Assembly (NCBI RefSeq): GCF_029318685.1
Contig: NZ_CP119677.1
Coordinates: forward strand, 1,116,001 to 1,180,000
Length of the DNA: 64,000 bases
From: Ruminiclostridium papyrosolvens DSM 2782
GTDB taxonomy: Bacteria; Bacillota; Clostridia; Acetivibrionales; DSM-1351
Reading direction: 5' to 3'
A program made the translations under genes and the position numbers. Under the pieces are notes generated by a model. It worked only from the letters and a program-made list of their open reading frames with translations. It was not told where the DNA came from and did no database searches. Shown here piece after piece: positions 19,170-38,864 of the stretch. The stretch's first letter is position 1, and every line of letters begins with the position of its first letter.

Positions 19170-19223
19170 TGTTTGTAAAAAATATTACTGTAATAAAACT
19201 CCAAAATTTATATTACTAATGCC

Positions 19224-19266
19224 AAAAAGATTTACATTGAAATGTAAAACATTTACAGACTATAAT
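19224..19266 (+). promoter_or_regulatory. Promoter with paired TTTACA elements upstream of the CE3-dockerin gene
   Basis: TTGAAA (19237-19242), an 18-bp spacer and TATAAT (19261-19266) form a good promoter. It is overlapped by two TTTACA elements whose starts are 21 bp apart (19231 and 19252); the first lies in the palindrome TTTACATTGAAATGTAAA. The same arrangement, including the upstream AAAAAGATTTA, recurs before the xylanase cluster at 36675-36717. This suggests that one activator, perhaps the AraC-type XydR-like protein, controls both. Confidence 0.6.
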
Positions 19267-19343
19267 TAAATTAGTGTTGATAAAAAGTCTTATTAAAAGT
19301 TCTTAATCTATTAAGATAAGAACTGTTCAAAGGAGGAAAAACA

Positions 19344-20288
19344 ATGTATAGTTTAAGAAAAAGACTGTTATCATTAGTAATGGTGGTAAGTATTTGTCTT
19401 TGTGTAAGTTCAGTTTCTAGTGCTAATCAGGATAACCAAACCACTTCACAAGCCGTAACTGCAGCGGCAGCAGCACTTATCGGTGATCTGAACGGAGATG
19501 GTGCGATTGATGCACTTGATTATTCTCTAATGAAGCAATTCTTAATTGGTACCGTTACAGACCTACCTGTTCAGGATGATTTATATGCTGCTGACCTTGA
19601 TGGTGATGCAAAAATAACAGCATTGGATTTATCCTTATTAAAGCAATATATTTTAGGACTCATTACAAAGTTTCCTAAAAATCCGCCTTCAAACATTACT
19701 ACTGTTATAATGCCTTTGGGAGATTCAATAACTGACGGTATAACTGTACCGGGAGCTTACAGAATAAAGCTATGGAGTAATATAACAAATGCCGGACAAA
19801 AAGTTGATTTTGTAGGCTCTATGTCAAACGGTCCCAGCCAACTTGGTGATAAGAACCATGAAGGCCACTCCGGTTGGCGTATTGATCAGATTGATTCTAA
19901 CATCAATGGATGGATGACTACATATAAACCCAAAATTGTTTTATTACACATAGGTACAAATGATATCTCACAAAAATATGATTTGAATAATGCACCTAAC
20001 AGGTTAAGTTCGTTAATTGACAAGATATGTGCTAAATTACCAAGTGATGGCAAGCTCTATGTTGCTAAAGTTATTCCTATAAGCTATGCAGATGTCAGGA
20101 ACTATAACAATCAAGTGGCTCAAGTTGTCCAAAACAAGGCTAGTCAAGGAAAGCCGGTGTTTGTTGTTGATATGTACAGTGCAGTTACTACATCCGATTT
20201 AGCTGATGGAGTTCATTGTAACCAAAATGGCTATAACAAGATGGCGGATGTTTGGTATAATGCTATCAAAAATGATTTAGGTAAATAA
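19344..20288 (+). CDS. Dockerin-CE3 acetylxylan esterase (SGNH family)
   Basis: A 314-residue secreted protein: signal peptide (about 1-27), N-terminal type I dockerin (about 46-110; GDLNGDGAIDALD and ITALDLSLLKQYILG), then an SGNH hydrolase domain. Catalytic blocks are GDSITDG (Ser near 127), GHSGWRID, GTNDIS and DGVHCN with the Asp-His pair near 287-290. This set fits family CE3 acetylxylan esterases that deacetylate xylan. The dockerin at the N-terminus is unusual, as most in this window are C-terminal. It has a GGAGG SD. Its promoter resembles that of the xylan cluster 17 kb downstream, so it is probably a co-regulated outlier of that system. Confidence 0.88.
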   Translation: MYSLRKRLLSLVMVVSICLCVSSVSSANQDNQTTSQAVTAAAAALIGDLNGDGAIDALDYSLMKQFLIGTVTDLPVQDDLYAADLDGDAKITALDLSLLKQYILGLITKFPKNPPSNITTVIMPLGDSITDGITVPGAYRIKLWSNITNAGQKVDFVGSMSNGPSQLGDKNHEGHSGWRIDQIDSNINGWMTTYKPKIVLLHIGTNDISQKYDLNNAPNRLSSLIDKICAKLPSDGKLYVAKVIPISYADVRNYNNQVAQVVQNKASQGKPVFVVDMYSAVTTSDLADGVHCNQNGYNKMADVWYNAIKNDLGK

Positions 20289-33380: not shown

Positions 33381-33419
33381 GCATTCAAGCTTGGGATACA
33401 TATAAGAGGAGAAATGATT

Positions 33420-34886
33420 ATGAGAATTATAAAATATTTAGGCATATCATTAAAAACAAAGATGAGAACTTTGATGTTTATTGCCATTATTCCGCTTCTG
33501 GTATTTGTTTCTTATCTTATTTTCCAAGTGGGTACATATTCGGATTACTATAATACAATATATAAAAGCATATCTGTTGCCAATGACTTTTCTCAGAAAT
33601 TCAAAAATGAATATGATTATAGTATGTATCAGATTGTAATAGGGTCAAGCAATTTTAAAAGAGAGGAAATATCTCAAAAGCTGGAAGATGCATATAACAA
33701 AGTTAATTATTTAAGAAAATCTGCTTTGATGCCTGAAAACAAAAGTACTACCAAATATATGAAGGATTATGTTGACAGTCTTAAACGCAGTACTGAAATT
33801 ATTAAAGTGAATTTAGAAGCAGATGGTCCTAAGTATGATAAGAATTTAATGATACTTGATAATGATATCAGAACTACCACAACCATGATTACGGATTCCA
33901 TTCAAAAATACGTATATATTGAAACCTTTCAGATGAACAAGGTACATAATAAAATTGAAGTGGAAAGAAAAAGAAATGTTACTTTTACATGTATAATTTT
34001 TGCAGTACTGTTTATGGTAACTCTTGTTTTGGTTGAATTTATTTCACACAGTATTACAAAACCCATAAAAAACCTGTGTATATCAACTAAATTAGTTGGA
34101 AATGGAGATTTTACCACACGTGTTCCGGATTCTGAAAGTGATGAGATAGCAATGTTAACAACAAGTTTTAACACAATGATTGAAAAGATAGGCAGTTTGG
34201 TGGAGGACGTGAAGCTGGAACAGATTAATTTAAGAAAGACTGAATTAAAGCTCATGCAAGCTCAAATAAATCCCCATTTTCTTTATAATACCTTGGATAC
34301 TATTATATGGCTGGCTGAAGGAAACAAAACCAAGGATGTTATACAGATGGTAAGTGCATTGTCCAGGTTTTTCAGGATTGCCTTGAGTAAGGGGTATGAC
34401 TATATAAGTATTAAGGAAGAAGAGATGCTTATAAGAAGCTATCTCCAGATTCAACAATACAGATATCAGGATATTCTGGAGTATGAGATAAATATTTCAG
34501 AGAAACTTGAAAACTGTAGTATTCTAAAGCTTACACTTCAGCCCATAGTTGAAAATGCCCTTTATCACGGAATAAAAAATAAAAGGGGAATGGGAAAAAT
34601 AATTATAGAGGGCTACTGCCAAGAGGACACTGTTTATTTAAAGGTAAAGGATAATGGAATCGGAATGAATCAGGAGCAAATTGAAAAGATTAGAAGGCTC
34701 CTTGTAATGCCAAAAGAAGAAGATGCTCTCGGACAAAAAGGATTTGGATTATTTAATGTAAATGAAAGGATTAAGCTGAATTTTGGGACTGAATACGGAC
34801 TGGATGTAAAAAGTGAATATGGTGTAGGAAGTGAGTTTACTATTTGCATCCCAAAAATCACCCAAAACCGTCATTATAATATTTAA
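33420..34886 (+). CDS. xydS: YesM-type sensor histidine kinase (XydS-like)
   Basis: A 488-residue kinase. Transmembrane helices at about 15-35 and 186-208 flank an extracytoplasmic domain of about 150 residues; a HAMP domain (SITKPIKNLCISTK...) follows, then the His_kinase domain with phospho-His near 286 in QINPHFLYNTLD and an HATPase domain (VENALYHGI, DNGIGM, GFGLFNVNERI). The ATG at 33420 is 8 bases from GAGGAG, whereas the ATG at 33414 is only 2 bases away. Together with the AraC-type regulator downstream it occupies the position of XydS/XydR, reported to switch on the R. cellulolyticum xyl-doc genes on straw. The signal is presumably a xylan-derived saccharide. Confidence 0.88.
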   Translation: MRIIKYLGISLKTKMRTLMFIAIIPLLVFVSYLIFQVGTYSDYYNTIYKSISVANDFSQKFKNEYDYSMYQIVIGSSNFKREEISQKLEDAYNKVNYLRKSALMPENKSTTKYMKDYVDSLKRSTEIIKVNLEADGPKYDKNLMILDNDIRTTTTMITDSIQKYVYIETFQMNKVHNKIEVERKRNVTFTCIIFAVLFMVTLVLVEFISHSITKPIKNLCISTKLVGNGDFTTRVPDSESDEIAMLTTSFNTMIEKIGSLVEDVKLEQINLRKTELKLMQAQINPHFLYNTLDTIIWLAEGNKTKDVIQMVSALSRFFRIALSKGYDYISIKEEEMLIRSYLQIQQYRYQDILEYEINISEKLENCSILKLTLQPIVENALYHGIKNKRGMGKIIIEGYCQEDTVYLKVKDNGIGMNQEQIEKIRRLLVMPKEEDALGQKGFGLFNVNERIKLNFGTEYGLDVKSEYGVGSEFTICIPKITQNRHYNI

Positions 34887-34957
34887 TTTGTAAAAAGAAG
34901 GTATTATAAATCTTAAAATGGAATATTTCACTTAGAACGGTTAGAGAGGTGATACAG

Positions 34958-36556
34958 GTGTATAAAGTATTTCTTGTGGATGACGAGGTTATTGTTCGTC
35001 ATGGTATCAGGGATTGCATTAAATGGGAGCAAACTGATTTTGTATTTTCAGGTGAAGCACCTGATGGTGAATTTGCATTGCCGCTGATTATGGAGATAAA
35101 GCCGGACATATTGATTACTGATATTAAAATGCCATTTATGGACGGTTTGGAGTTAAGCCAGGTGGTCAGGAAAAATATGCCTTGGGTTAAGATTATTATA
35201 TTGAGCGGACATGACGAGTTTGGGTATGCCAGGGAGGCAATGCGCATAGGGGTAACAGAATACTTGCTAAAACCTGTGACTGCCCAGGACCTCCTTGAAT
35301 CATTGGAAAAAGTCAAAGATTTAATTATAAACGAAAAACGCGAAAGAGAAAACGCTGAGAAAATCAGAAAACAACTTGCCGAGAATGCTCCTTTATTCAG
35401 GGATAAATTTTTAAGCGAGTTATTATTAGGCATGGTTCCTCCTGTTGAGGTTATAGATAATTGTGAAAGCTTGGATATAAATATAATTTCGAAGTTTTAT
35501 ATTGTAGAGATTTTAGAGTTAGAAACGCCGAAAAAAAATGCTTCAGACGGAGAGTATACCGAAGTACTGCAGGCAGAGGCTTTGATTGATAGCATTGTCA
35601 GCAAAAACAGTGAAATTATCAAGTTCAGAAGGATGCTTGGAGAAATTATAGTAATAATAAAAGGTGACAACTTACAAAATATAGAAGAAGCTGCCTATAG
35701 TTTAGCTCAATCTTTTAAATACGAAGTGGAAAGGAAAACATCATGTATACTGGGAATCAGTATCGGTGGTGCAAGGGAAAGAATACAAGGAATTACGCAA
35801 TCATTTAAGGAAGCTGACGAAATAAAAAACTACCGCTACATATACGGGAAACGCAAGATTCTCGGTATAAACGATATAAAGTCTGATATGGGTAGTAAAA
35901 AGGATTTTATTAAAATTGACATGAATAATACTTACGAATTTTTGAAGTGCGGACTGAAATCTGATGTGGGAAGTTTTGTAGATAAGTTTATTGATAACCT
36001 GAATGAGATTGAGATGAAGTCACCCATGTATATTCATTATTTATTCATGGATGTGGTAATAAGTGCGTCCCGGTTTGTTGAAGAACTTGGAGGAGAAATT
36101 GAAACTCTTTTGCCCTGGGTTTCAAATTTAGAAAGCTTTGTTGCAGGTATAGATTCAATAGAAAAGTTCGGAGAATTAACAGAATATACTTTAAAAATTG
36201 TATTGGAATTCAGAGATACAAGGGTAGAGAGGAAATATGACAGCATTATAAAGAAAGCAAAGGAATATATACATAGCAATTTTGCGAACTCAAATATTTC
36301 TTTAATTTCAGTTGCATCATATGTTAATGTCAGTCCAAGCCATTTTAGTACCATTTTCAGTCAGGAGGCAGGAGAAAATTTTATTGAATACCTGACAAAA
36401 GTAAGGGTAAAAAAGGCGATGGAGCTTTTAAAAACTACATCTCTAAAATCGTCAGAAATTGCTTATAATGTTGGGTATAACGACCCTCATTATTTCTGTT
36501 ATATTTTTAAGAAAGCCACAGGAATTACTCCTAAGGAGTATCGAAGTGAAACATAG
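34958..36556 (+). CDS. xydR: AraC-type response regulator (XydR-like)
   Basis: A 532-residue YesN-type regulator: receiver domain (FLVDDEVIVRHG; phospho-Asp near 55 in ILITDIKMPF; Lys in LLKPVT), a long helical/GGDEF-like middle region, and a C-terminal double helix-turn-helix of the AraC family (ISLISVASYVNVSPSHFSTIF ... SSEIAYNVGYNDPHYF). The GTG at 34958 is preferred, with AGAGGTGAT 5 bases upstream. It lies 71 bp after the kinase. The likely targets are the promoter at 36675 and its look-alike before the CE3 gene. The name is given by genomic position and published precedent. Confidence 0.88.
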   Translation: MYKVFLVDDEVIVRHGIRDCIKWEQTDFVFSGEAPDGEFALPLIMEIKPDILITDIKMPFMDGLELSQVVRKNMPWVKIIILSGHDEFGYAREAMRIGVTEYLLKPVTAQDLLESLEKVKDLIINEKRERENAEKIRKQLAENAPLFRDKFLSELLLGMVPPVEVIDNCESLDINIISKFYIVEILELETPKKNASDGEYTEVLQAEALIDSIVSKNSEIIKFRRMLGEIIVIIKGDNLQNIEEAAYSLAQSFKYEVERKTSCILGISIGGARERIQGITQSFKEADEIKNYRYIYGKRKILGINDIKSDMGSKKDFIKIDMNNTYEFLKCGLKSDVGSFVDKFIDNLNEIEMKSPMYIHYLFMDVVISASRFVEELGGEIETLLPWVSNLESFVAGIDSIEKFGELTEYTLKIVLEFRDTRVERKYDSIIKKAKEYIHSNFANSNISLISVASYVNVSPSHFSTIFSQEAGENFIEYLTKVRVKKAMELLKTTSLKSSEIAYNVGYNDPHYFCYIFKKATGITPKEYRSET

Positions 36557-36674
36557 CAAAAAAAATATATTATAACAAATGTTAAAAAAAATATACATAT
36601 GCATAGAGGAAAATAATCAATTTACTATTTTTTCATCTTATGGTAAAATAATTACAAAATATTATACCAATAAC

Positions 36675-36717
36675 AAAAAGATTTATATTGAGATGGAAAC
36701 TGTTTACATTCTATAAT
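36675..36717 (+). promoter_or_regulatory. Promoter of the xylanase cluster with paired TTTAYA elements
   Basis: TTGAGA (36688-36693), an 18-bp spacer and TATAAT (36712-36717). TTTATA (36682) and TTTACA (36703) begin 21 bp apart, exactly as TTTACA/TTTACA do before the CE3 gene, and both regions begin with AAAAAGATTTA. Elements repeated on one face of the helix at two-turn spacing are typical of AraC-family binding sites. Confidence 0.6.
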
Positions 36718-36778
36718 AAATTAACATAGTTAATATGTACTAATCGTTCTTTTTCATTTTACTCCTATTCTTACATTA

Positions 36779-36857
36779 GCCAAAGAAAGTCAATACCTTA
36801 CATACAATATTGGACGGAGAACTTTATTTAGTTATTGGTATTGGCTTATCTTTTGGC
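36779..36857 (+). promoter_or_regulatory. Large stem-loop in the cluster leader
   Basis: The 19-nt arm GCCAAAGAAAGTCAATACC (36779-36797) pairs along its whole length with 36837-36857, with two bulged bases and one G-U pair, closing a 39-nt loop. There is no U-run after it, so a stability or processing role is more likely than termination. Confidence 0.6.
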
Positions 36858-37238
36858 CAAGTGCTAAAAGATAATAATTAGACAAAATAAGAAGGGGGGC
36901 TCAAAATTCACTAAAAAATAGTCTAATCTTCCTATCAATCGTAATAACTTTAAGTAGTTGATTCCGACCAAACTTGTATGCAGGAGCGTACATCGTTAAT
37001 TCATATTATTATACACTTTTCAAATAGCATTTTAGCAAATTATCTTATGCTGCCAGGAATGACAACCTTGGCTTTTCTTGAAGAATTAATACTTCAGTAA
37101 AAACACTATATATGCATTACTTAACGAGATCATTGCCTAATATTTTGTACATGATGGGATGGTTGCGGCTAACGCTGTTCATTTGAACAGTGCTTTATGC
37201 TGTCGGTTACAAATTAATTTAAACGGAGGGAAATAAGT

Positions 37239-38864
37239 ATGTTTAACAAAAGTAAAAACCGTAAGTTCAGAATTTTTAGCACTTTATTTTCAGCACTTTT
37301 ATGTGCCTGCATTATCAACAGTAGTTTACCGCTTACAGCAAATGCTGCAATGGCAACTGGCAAAGCTAAATGGGTTGGTAATATTTGGTATGGTGGTTCT
37401 GCGCCAAGCCGTTATGGAGACTATTGGAATCAGCTTACACCTGAAAATGCTACCAAGTGGGGTTCATGTGAATCACAGCAAGGCGTATACAATTTTAGTC
37501 AGGCTAAAGCAATGTATAATTACTGTAAAACAAACAAAATTCCTTTTAAGTTCCATACACTTATCTGGGGCTCACAGTATCCAAATTGGTTAGGCGGTTT
37601 ATCCGGTTCAGCAAGAAAAACAGCCATAGAAAACTGGTATAAAGCTGCTGCACAGAATTTCCCGGATGCTGAATACATTGATGTTGTAAATGAAGCTATG
37701 CCCGGACATGCCCCATTCCCATACAAGAATGATATCGGAGGAGACAATGGTCTCTATGGTACAGGCTGGGATTGGATTGTATGGTCTTTTGAAATGGCTC
37801 GTAAATATTTCCCAAATTCAAAACTGCTGATTAATGACTATAATGTTTTGAATGAATGGTCTTGTCTTGACCAATATATACCTGTTGTAAAAATATTGAA
37901 GGCAAGAAACCTGATTGATGGTGTTGGTTGCCAATCACACGGACTTGATAAGACAAGCGCTGCAAATCTGAAGTCAAGACTGGACAGACTTGCTGCAACA
38001 GGTGTACCTATATATATTTCTGAATTTGATTTAGATATCGCAGATGATAATACACAGAAAAACAAGATGCAGGAGCTTTTCCCTGTAATGTATGAACATT
38101 CAGCAGTAAAAGGTGTTACTATCTGGGGATACTTGCAGGGACATACCTGGATTCCGAATTCTCACCTTCTGCGCAGTGACGGATCTGAAAGACCTGCAAT
38201 GACTTGGTTAAAGCAGTATATGGCAAAAGTTCCGGGTGATGATGTACCTGTAGAAACAAGAAGTGCATTTTCAAAATTGGAAGCAGAAAGCTATAACGAC
38301 CAGTCCGGAATACAGAACGTTACATGTGATGAAGGAACAGAGGCTGTGGGATATACAGAAAACGGAGATTATACCGTTTACAAGAATATTGATTTCTCAA
38401 ACGGAGCTACAGGCTTCCTTGCAAGAGTATCAAGTGCTAACAGCGGAGGAAAAATCGAAATCAGACTTGATAGCCCTACAGGTACATTGATAGGAACTTG
38501 TCCGGTTTCAGGAACAGGGGACTGGCAGAAATTTGTGGATGCTAAGTGTACTGTCAGCGGTGTAAGCGGAAAGCATGACTTGTATCTGAAATTCACAGGA
38601 GACAGCGGTTACTTAATTAATCTAAATTGGTTTATGTTCAGCAACACTCCTGTTTCTACAGATAAAATAGGTGACTTGAATTCAGACGGACAAATAGATG
38701 CACTTGATTTGCTGGTATTGAAAAAGTGTATTTTAGGTATGGGAACTGTTGAAAATACAAAGCTTGCAGATGTGGATGCCAGCGGCACAATTGATTCCAT
38801 TGATTTCGTACTTATGAAACAGTACATACTTGGTCAAATATCAGTATTTCCTGCTGAAAAATAA
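37239..38864 (+). CDS. GH10 endo-xylanase - CBM6 - dockerin
   Basis: A 541-residue cellulosomal xylanase. Signal peptide about 1-32; GH10 barrel about 34-335 with acid/base Glu near 152 (VVNEAM) and nucleophile Glu near 262 (ISEFDLDI); family 6 carbohydrate-binding module about 341-467 (FSKLEAESYNDQSG ... GYLINLNWFMF); type I dockerin about 478-541 (QIDALDLLVLKK; TIDSIDFVLMKQ). It cuts the beta-1,4-xylan backbone, while CBM6 binds xylan. First gene after the leader, with GGAGGG 8 bases upstream. It supplies the main endo-activity for the debranching enzymes encoded after it. Confidence 0.96.
   Translation: MFNKSKNRKFRIFSTLFSALLCACIINSSLPLTANAAMATGKAKWVGNIWYGGSAPSRYGDYWNQLTPENATKWGSCESQQGVYNFSQAKAMYNYCKTNKIPFKFHTLIWGSQYPNWLGGLSGSARKTAIENWYKAAAQNFPDAEYIDVVNEAMPGHAPFPYKNDIGGDNGLYGTGWDWIVWSFEMARKYFPNSKLLINDYNVLNEWSCLDQYIPVVKILKARNLIDGVGCQSHGLDKTSAANLKSRLDRLAATGVPIYISEFDLDIADDNTQKNKMQELFPVMYEHSAVKGVTIWGYLQGHTWIPNSHLLRSDGSERPAMTWLKQYMAKVPGDDVPVETRSAFSKLEAESYNDQSGIQNVTCDEGTEAVGYTENGDYTVYKNIDFSNGATGFLARVSSANSGGKIEIRLDSPTGTLIGTCPVSGTGDWQKFVDAKCTVSGVSGKHDLYLKFTGDSGYLINLNWFMFSNTPVSTDKIGDLNSDGQIDALDLLVLKKCILGMGTVENTKLADVDASGTIDSIDFVLMKQYILGQISVFPAEK

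What the first reader, a model, noticed from the sequence alone, without database searches (positions are those of the whole stretch)
36557..37238. Long structured 5' leader before the xylanase cluster
About 515 nt would separate the proposed start site from the first codon. The region holds a 19-bp imperfect stem with a 39-nt loop, a second stem around an SD-like run, and a perfect CTGTTCA/TGAACAG hairpin. RNA processing and stabilisation are known for the cip-cel operon of R. cellulolyticum, so a comparable role is plausible here. It could also be a sensor RNA.
Basis: partly seen in the sequence, partly recalled or inferred. Interest (0 to 1): 0.6.

Follow-up and report, generated by a model that had tools for sequence, protein, structure and literature searches.

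The report
Known attenuating leader of hemicellulase cluster
This is the long untranslated RNA leader of a plant-fibre-degrading gene cluster, already shown in this very bacterium to hold the cluster's expression down; here we add that it shares a short conserved run, which looks like a very strong ribosome-docking site with no start codon, with leaders of other fibre-degrading genes.

Summary
The leader is real and already in print. I confirm the 19-bp stem with 39-nt loop (z -4.5) and the CTGTTCA hairpin (z -3.0; one pair with compensatory change in four genomes). The stem around the SD-like run is no better than chance (z -0.4). New here: promoter and leader start are shared with other hemicellulase genes, and a run TAAGAAGGGRGG occurs in 11 of 15 such long leaders from six genomes. 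It pairs with the 16S tail at -15.1 to -17.6 kcal/mol (three gene SDs: about -11) but has no start codon within 16 nt in 10 of 11. It resembles the STAB-SD of cry3A; its function is untested. Two relatives have a GH43 gene directly after this leader; four genomes, this one included, do not. This favours gene loss or relocation over the published idea of transfer into R. cellulolyticum. Already known overall; the start-less SD is the new lead.

The parts
33414..34886 (+). xydS sensor histidine kinase (HAMP, His_kinase, HATPase_c)
   Evidence: Pfam; name by position and literature (PMC3572039)
34949..36556 (+). xydR response regulator (receiver + AraC-type HTH)
   Evidence: Pfam
36646..36717 (+). 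promoter block shared with other hemicellulase/dockerin genes; -35 TTGAGA 36688-36693, -10 TATAAT 36712-36717
   Evidence: the R. cellulolyticum equivalents lie in regions bound by XydR in band shifts (PMC3572039)
36724..37238 (+). 5' leader of xyl-doc, 515 nt (start predicted, not mapped here)
   Evidence: PMC5815224
36762..36772 (+). 5' block CTCCTATTCTT (anti-SD-like), within the most conserved 60 nt of the leader; complementary to the SD-like run with one bulged A
36779..36857 (+). 19-bp imperfect stem with 39-nt loop; uses CTTTTGGC, so excludes the next hairpin
   Evidence: arms kept in 5 of 6 xyl-doc leaders, in 0 of 5 others tested
36848..36872 (+). competing 10-bp hairpin ATCTTTTGGC/GCTAAAAGAT
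   Evidence: z -3.26, 2 of 200; kept in 5 of 6 xyl-doc leaders
36888..36899 (+). SD-like run TAAGAAGGGGGG without a start codon, present in 11 leaders, 339 nt before ATG
37132..37173 (+). possible decayed remnant of a GH43 gene's dockerin-linker coding sequence (weak, contested evidence)
   Evidence: not found by a profile
37173..37192 (+). CTGTTCA/TGAACAG hairpin, weakly terminator-like
   Evidence: absent from R. cellulolyticum
37225..37229 (+). gene's own SD, GGAGG
37239..38864 (+). first gene of xyl-doc here: GH10 xylanase + CBM6 + dockerin
   Evidence: Pfam
19182..19273 (+). second copy of the promoter block in the window, before a dockerin-GDSL esterase gene (19344-20288) whose short leader has neither block

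Best explanation
It is the xyl-doc 5'-UTR, a second gate behind a promoter controlled by the response regulator XydR. Transcription starts near 36724. Without plant hemicellulose products most output is lost in the leader; with corn stover part of it passes. The gate is a folding choice in the 5' third of the leader: the 19-bp stem and the competing hairpin share one strand and are nearly equal in energy. I infer that what is gated is access of a 30S ribosomal subunit to a start-less, very strong SD (36888-36899). In one state that run pairs with the 5' block CTCCTATTCTT; in the other it is free, a 30S subunit docks there and protects the downstream RNA from 5'-3' decay or from Rho, as STAB-SD does for cry3A. 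Shown by others: the leader lowers expression, and corn stover partly relieves it. Shown here: shared conserved blocks, strong 16S complementarity, no start codon, near-equal alternative folds. Inferred: 30S docking, its link to the hairpin choice, protection, and the signal.
For: Reporter data in this strain and in E. coli (PMC5815224). Genome length 5,027,861 equals R. papyrosolvens DSM 2782. 19-bp stem z -4.52; stem form -23.3 and two-hairpin form -24.8 kcal/mol, on 80- and 95-nt pieces. TAAGAAGGGRGG: present in 11 of 15 long leaders, all 6 xyl-doc leaders among them, and 11 of its 12 columns are invariant in an 11-row alignment of 61% mean identity. Duplex with the 16S tail -15.1 to -17.6 kcal/mol against -10.6 to -11.1 for three genes' own SDs; no ATG/GTG/TTG within 16 nt in 10 of 11, the other being ATG-TAG; tail read from three rRNA loci. 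Among the SD-like sites printed for this window (best 25 of 33 on +, 20 of 20 on -; ORFs taken from a hand-picked 39 of the 59) it is the only intergenic one not just before an ORF. Against the run, 0, 1, 0, 0, 0 other leader windows pair as well as the 5' block in five xyl-doc leaders, shuffled-block p 0.01-0.08.
Against: Genome-wide the run is not enriched: 19 exact hits in 11 genomes, 23 for the reversed control pattern; the case rests on its place in the leaders. The 5' block/run helix has high ensemble probability only in R. papyrosolvens and R. cellulolyticum xyl-doc (0.90, about 1); it is 0.00-0.17 in the other nine, and shuffled blocks pair as well in the five GH43 leaders (p 0.36-0.60). 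In G001 the 5' block is largely lost while the run stays, and G001 has neither alternative hairpin, so block, hairpins and run do not always go together. Four of five leaders of the beta-helix gene lack the run. Published data show repression, not stabilisation. Beyond the first 60 nt (98-100% identical) the leader is no better conserved than the adjacent intergenic stretch (87-94%). No RNA-end, decay or ribosome data were available.
Confidence: 0.35

Rival explanations
1. Ligand-binding riboswitch ending in an intrinsic terminator, as proposed in 2018: an oligosaccharide shifts the leader fold and lets RNA polymerase pass.
For: Loss of reporter output in two hosts, partial relief by corn stover (and in E. 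coli by xylose, 5.8% to 11.5%), two alternative folds (PMC5815224), kept in five of six xyl-doc leaders. The CTGTTCA hairpin is terminator-like and has one pair with compensatory change.
Against: Its U-run is poor (CTTTATGCTG), and R. cellulolyticum, where the leader-high/gene-low profile was seen, lacks this hairpin. The scan found no terminator in the shared 5' half. A term search of the paper found no RACE, Northern or Rho. The leader hairpins are absent from G001 xyl-doc and from the other six...: kept in 5 of the 11 leaders tested. Within the 58 genomes of the order, matches are confined to this genus plus one short promoter-side match.
Confidence: 0.2
2. Rho-dependent termination: the long untranslated leader with its pyrimidine-rich, G-poor start loads Rho unless it is folded or covered by a ribosome; the effect in E. 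coli would follow from its own Rho.
For: A Rho_RNA_bind protein is encoded. The silencing works in E. coli; the conserved leader start is pyrimidine-rich with few G (by eye).
Against: No Rho-site prediction was run; much of the leader is structured; the term 'Rho' does not occur in the paper.
Confidence: 0.2
3. RNA processing and stabilisation of the cip-cel kind acting on this leader.
For: Such processing is established for cip-cel in R. cellulolyticum and predicted for xyl-doc (passages of PMC4423207).
Against: The prediction concerns intergenic stem-loops of the cluster; I saw no processed end reported in this leader.
Confidence: 0.1
4. Mostly a passive by-product: the leader is long because a GH43 gene that followed it in the ancestor was lost, and only the promoter and the first 60 nt matter.
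For: GH43-first order in G001 and R. cellulolyticum, G001 outermost in a midpoint-rooted XydR tree (the tool warns that its long branch makes its place unsure); weak GH43-like stretches in the 3' half.
Against: In vivo the promoter without the leader is far more active than with it (PMC5815224); the main stems are better than chance; a GH43 profile finds no remnant.
Confidence: 0.1

Closest known systems
xyl-doc 5'-UTR of R. papyrosolvens / R. cellulolyticum (Zou et al. 2018, PMC5815224)
   Same: The same leader, organism and cluster; alternative hairpins of the kind their text describes (figures not seen).
STAB-SD of Bacillus thuringiensis cry3A (passages of the review PMC4113751)
   Same: SD-like run complementary to the 16S tail, no translation start, far upstream of the gene in a long leader (558-nt primary leader there, 515 nt predicted here).
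   Different: No processed end, 30S binding or stabilisation shown here; the leader as a whole represses; there is a complementary upstream block.
XydR target promoters of R. cellulolyticum, Ccel_1229 and Ccel_1656 (PMC3572039)
   Same: The same promoter words GATTTATA-N6-TGGAAA-N3-TTTACA; both genes lie behind long leaders of this family (spacer 572 bp and -10 at -415 and -299 fit G002).
   Different: That work treated the promoters; shared leader blocks were not described in the passages and discussion part I read.
mgtA-type dual control (two-component system plus leader), cited by Zou et al.
   Same: A two-component system starts transcription and the leader decides the rest.
   Different: No ligand or terminator is established here.

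Membership tests
STAB-SD 5' mRNA stabiliser | Strong complementarity to the 16S 3' tail | tested here: met
   -15.1 to -17.6 kcal/mol in 11 leaders; three gene SDs -10.6 to -11.1
STAB-SD 5' mRNA stabiliser | Does not direct translation: no start codon at usable distance | tested here: met
   10 of 11 have no ATG/GTG/TTG within 16 nt; the other is ATG-TAG. By sequence only
STAB-SD 5' mRNA stabiliser | Sits at a processed or protected 5' end and blocks RNase J1 | not testable with these tools
   needs 5'-end mapping and decay assays
Riboswitch | Conserved aptamer with covariation across distant species | tested here: not met
   No Rfam family; in 58 genomes of the order only this genus plus one short promoter-side match; hairpin arms in 5 of 11 leaders tested; 4 of 130 consensus pairs changed on both sides in four close genomes. 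Unproven, not excluded
Riboswitch | Ligand binding changes the fold | not testable with these tools
   needs in-line probing
Intrinsic-terminator attenuator | Stable GC-rich hairpin followed by a U-run within the leader | tested here: inconclusive
   In the leader only 37173-37192 qualifies on the sense strand, with a poor U-run
XydR-regulated promoter | The promoter words shared by Ccel_1229 and Ccel_1656 | tested here: met
   present at 36680-36708
XydR-regulated promoter | XydR binding to this DNA | not testable with these tools
   band shifts published for R. cellulolyticum
cip-cel-type processing (SRPS) | Mapped processing site at a stem-loop | not testable with these tools
   R. cellulolyticum map: xyl-doc not transcribed in the tested conditions

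The most novel reading that the evidence does not exclude
A regulon-wide leader element: hemicellulase genes with XydR-type promoters also share an RNA element in which a start-less, super-strong SD captures 30S subunits and a complementary upstream block controls that capture, coupling RNA survival or elongation of the hemicellulase messages to ribosome availability or to a sugar signal. The abundant free leader could also act in trans through its anti-SD block.
Probability: 0.22. Interest if true: 0.65.

Novelty: already known. Interest (0 to 1): 0.35.

Why it matters
Straw-dependent production of hemicellulases in cellulosome-forming clostridia depends in part on this leader, and the riboswitch idea of 2018 was put forward without a ligand or a mapped terminator. 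A shared 12-nt element with 16S complementarity, present in leaders of xyl-doc, GH43 and one beta-helix gene, gives a concrete mutation to make and a comparison set. The gene order in two relatives suggests that the R. papyrosolvens-type arrangement arose by loss or relocation of a GH43 gene, not that R. cellulolyticum gained one by transfer.

Tried and rejected
Rfam scan of 35000-38500: one sub-threshold hit inside the xylanase gene. CsrA site: dropped, because the xyl-doc run GGGGGG lacks GGA (by eye; the CsrA motif is recalled). Leader peptide directly after the SD-like run: no conserved start. A 13-16 codon ORF near 37047-37100, kept in several relatives without a proper SD, was seen by eye and not pursued. 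Stem around the SD-like run: rejected. Whole-leader conservation as proof of function: identity 85-96% against 56-77% at four-fold sites of xydR, but the adjacent intergenic control is equally conserved, so only the first 60 nt stand out. The run and the 5' block as genome-wide markers: TAAGAAGGGRGG has 19 hits against 23 for the reversed control (totals); CTCCTATTCTTNNA 18 hits, 5 of them xyl-doc leaders, against 35; TNCTCCTATTCTTTAYA 8 hits, 7 of them leaders of this family, against 0 (the eighth, in G008, shows neither promoter nor run by eye). GH43 remnant in the 3' half: nucleotide hits to the end of the R. cellulolyticum gene, E 2e-4 to 0.23; 6 of 36 protein-frame tests at p 0.000-0.037 against GH43 C-termini, none of them in G005; but p 0.004, 0.09, 0.14 and 0.31 in four genomes against the whole protein, the best match in G000 and G005 lying elsewhere, and no hit by a six-gene profile; left as weak. 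Exact two-block pattern over the public genome collection: two loci, both R. papyrosolvens C7; records near the window's genome may be left out there. A literature query on start-less SD elements in clostridia returned nothing (narrow terms). That the shared leader blocks are not in print rests on searches of an open-access library and on the passages named in the report; it is not proof.

Counts dropped or mis-picked: the 11-row alignment leaves out four leaders of the beta-helix gene that lack the run (of 15 long leaders) and five promoter-only loci with short leaders (L004, L010, L018-L020). In one search the gene-SD row for L016 was mis-picked by my pattern and is ignored. In one search one pair probability for L008 reads 1.05 because a sum was divided by a fixed 10. 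One search skipped windows with fewer than five G, stepped by 2 nt and printed the best 25 of 33 plus-strand sites. One search found nothing because my pattern had a wrong base; one search replaced it. Gene families were scanned with Pfam for the window genes and for one GH43 (L003) and one beta-helix gene (L002), both partial; the other loci were assigned by similarity seen and, for GH43 of R. cellulolyticum, by 82-83% identity to three others.

Full report
What the window is. The window is G000:C1:1116001-1180000 of a 5,027,861-bp single-contig genome, the length published for R. papyrosolvens DSM 2782 (abstract of PMC10701907, in the listing). Pfam names the neighbours: a sensor kinase (33414-34886), a receiver/AraC-type regulator (34949-36556) and a GH10-CBM6-dockerin xylanase (37239-38864). 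This is xydS-xydR-xyl-doc.

The finding is in print. Zou et al. 2018 (PMC5815224) studied this leader in this strain. I read the abstract, background, results, discussion and conclusions, not the methods or figures, and searched the text for terms. They align the intergenic region of four species, predict a distal promoter and a leader of more than 400 nt, and report that in R. cellulolyticum the leader RNA is much more abundant than the genes on glucose, cellobiose and cellulose. By reporter, the promoter alone has 157% of a reference promoter on cellobiose and promoter plus leader hardly any activity. With a synthetic promoter in E. coli the leader leaves 5.8%, and 11.5% with xylose. Promoter plus leader stays under 10% of the reference on all carbon sources but corn stover, where it reaches 25%; the promoter alone is less active on polysaccharides than on sugars. 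They describe two hairpins, one of which can open into a larger stem, and propose a riboswitch. The text has no hit for RACE, Northern or Rho; the effect was read by fluorescence, so termination, decay and translation are not separated.

Check of the observation. The 19-bp stem with its 39-nt loop lies at 36779-36857 and is far better than chance (z -4.52, 0 of 200 shuffles). The CTGTTCA/TGAACAG hairpin is at 37173-37192 (z -3.04, 1 of 200); its outermost pair varies U-A/C-G/U-G over four genomes. The stem around the SD-like run is not supported (z -0.41). The consensus fold of four leaders has 130 pairs, 4 with a change on both sides; the covariation term does not favour the fold (+1.44). Four close sequences give little power.

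Conservation. Among four genomes the leader is 85-96% identical where four-fold sites of xydR are 56-77%. But the stretch between xydR and the promoter is 87-94% identical, so the leader as a whole is not exceptional; its first 60 nt, at 98-100%, are.

A leader family. Searching the genus with the leader (7 of 11 genomes with hits) finds promoter and leader start at other loci. After turning all loci to one strand there are 15 long leaders: xyl-doc in G000, G002, G005, G006 and G007; GH43-CBM6 genes in five genomes, of which the one in G001 proves to be the first gene of its xyl-doc cluster; and a beta-helix gene in five, of which the R. cellulolyticum one fits the known XydR target Ccel_1656 (its -10 lies 299 bp before the start, as published). 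Pfam was run on one GH43 and one beta-helix gene. Dockerin-GDSL-esterase genes have the promoter only, one of them in this window (19182-19273). Celik et al. 2013 (PMC3572039; passages and the first part of the discussion) showed that XydR binds upstream of Ccel_1229 and Ccel_1656 and listed common promoter words; leaders were not treated in what I read.

Two blocks. In an alignment of 11 of the 15 leaders (mean identity 61%) the invariant columns gather in the leader start, with CTCCTATTCTT, and in TAAGAAGGGRGG. The run is in 6 of 6 xyl-doc leaders, 4 of 4 leaders of stand-alone GH43 genes and 1 of 5 of the beta-helix gene. As a bare word it is not enriched in the genomes: 19 exact hits in 11 genomes, 11 of them these leaders, against 23 for the reversed control; its interest lies in its place. 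It pairs with the 16S tail GGAUCACCUCCUUUCU (read from three rRNA loci) at -15.1 to -17.6 kcal/mol; the SDs of three genes score -10.6 to -11.1. Ten of 11 have no ATG, GTG or TTG in the next 16 nt; one has ATG-TAG. It lies 164-365 nt before the gene. Among the sites printed for this window (best 25 of 33 on the plus strand, 20 of 20 on the minus strand) it is the only intergenic one not directly before an ORF. That is the sequence anatomy of the STAB-SD of cry3A (passages of PMC4113751): an SD-like run that does not start translation but holds a 30S subunit against RNase J1.

The two blocks are complementary: CUCCU(A)UUCUU with AAGAAGGGRG. In five xyl-doc leaders almost no other window pairs as well with the run (0, 1, 0, 0, 0 others; shuffle p 0.01-0.08). 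But the ensemble favours this helix in only two of 11 full leaders; composition explains it in the GH43 leaders (p 0.36-0.60); and G001 has largely lost the upstream block. The hairpins, too, are kept in only five of the 11 leaders tested: five xyl-doc leaders have the 19-bp stem and the competing hairpin, four of them also the CTGTTCA hairpin, while G001 xyl-doc, the four stand-alone GH43 leaders and the R. cellulolyticum beta-helix leader have none. So the run is the most constant element, and its link to block and hairpins is a guess.

Gene order. In R. cellulolyticum (G002; spacer 572 bp and -10 at -415 as published) and in G001 the order is xydR, leader, GH43, next a gene resembling GH10. 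In an XydR tree rooted at the midpoint G001 is outermost and G002 next; the tool warns that G001's branch is long. So the GH43-first order looks older, and G000, G005, G006 and G007 have GH43 at a separate locus with its own copy of promoter and leader. Zou et al. suggested transfer of GH43 with 190 bp into R. cellulolyticum; loss or relocation in the other lineage fits better. A decayed GH43 tail in the 3' half of the leader is possible (in G007 a frame reads ITKFSVHDGMVAA against ITKFPIEDGIIAA, p 0.004) but the tests disagree.

Mechanism. The CTGTTCA hairpin is missing in R. cellulolyticum, where the leader-high, gene-low profile was seen. So a common gate should lie in the 5' half, where the scan finds no intrinsic terminator but there are the alternative hairpins and the start-less SD. 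I put 30S docking, gated by the fold, first (0.35), ahead of a classical riboswitch (0.2) and Rho (0.2; a Rho_RNA_bind protein is encoded).

Verdict. The leader and its effect are already known. The shared start-less SD and the GH43-first order in G001 are additions that I did not find in print (searches, open-access library only). Range: 8 of 58 genomes of the order match promoter and leader start; 7 are of this genus, one of them (G004) by the promoter alone, and the eighth is a short promoter-side match at E 8e-5.

Noticed in passing
window 19182-19273 and gene 19344-20288: The same promoter block stands before a dockerin-GDSL-esterase gene in the same window; loci L010, L018, L019 and L020 of relatives look alike, so this gene is probably in the same regulon.
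   Followed up: partly
L092 (G001) and L090 (R. cellulolyticum): GH43 is the first gene after the leader in both, against its separate location in R. papyrosolvens-type genomes; this argues against acquisition of GH43 by transfer in R. cellulolyticum.
   Followed up: partly
L002, L011, L012 (leaders of the beta-helix gene): In these short leaders the 5' block CTCCTATTCTTTACATT is complementary to the gene's own SD region (predicted fold in L002 and L012; no other window pairs better, but shuffle p 0.15-0.21), as if the start site were hidden by a long-range helix.
   Followed up: partly
window about 37205-37215 against L005, L006, L007: Relatives carry a further stretch with a hairpin (GTTACCGGGGGTAAC) just before the gene's SD; about 23 nt of it are missing in DSM 2782, perhaps by deletion between direct repeats.
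   Followed up: no
window 37047-37100: A short ORF (M-[TV]-T-L-A-[FY]-L-E-[ED]-L-I-L-Q) is kept in the four R. papyrosolvens-type leaders without a proper SD (by eye).
   Followed up: no
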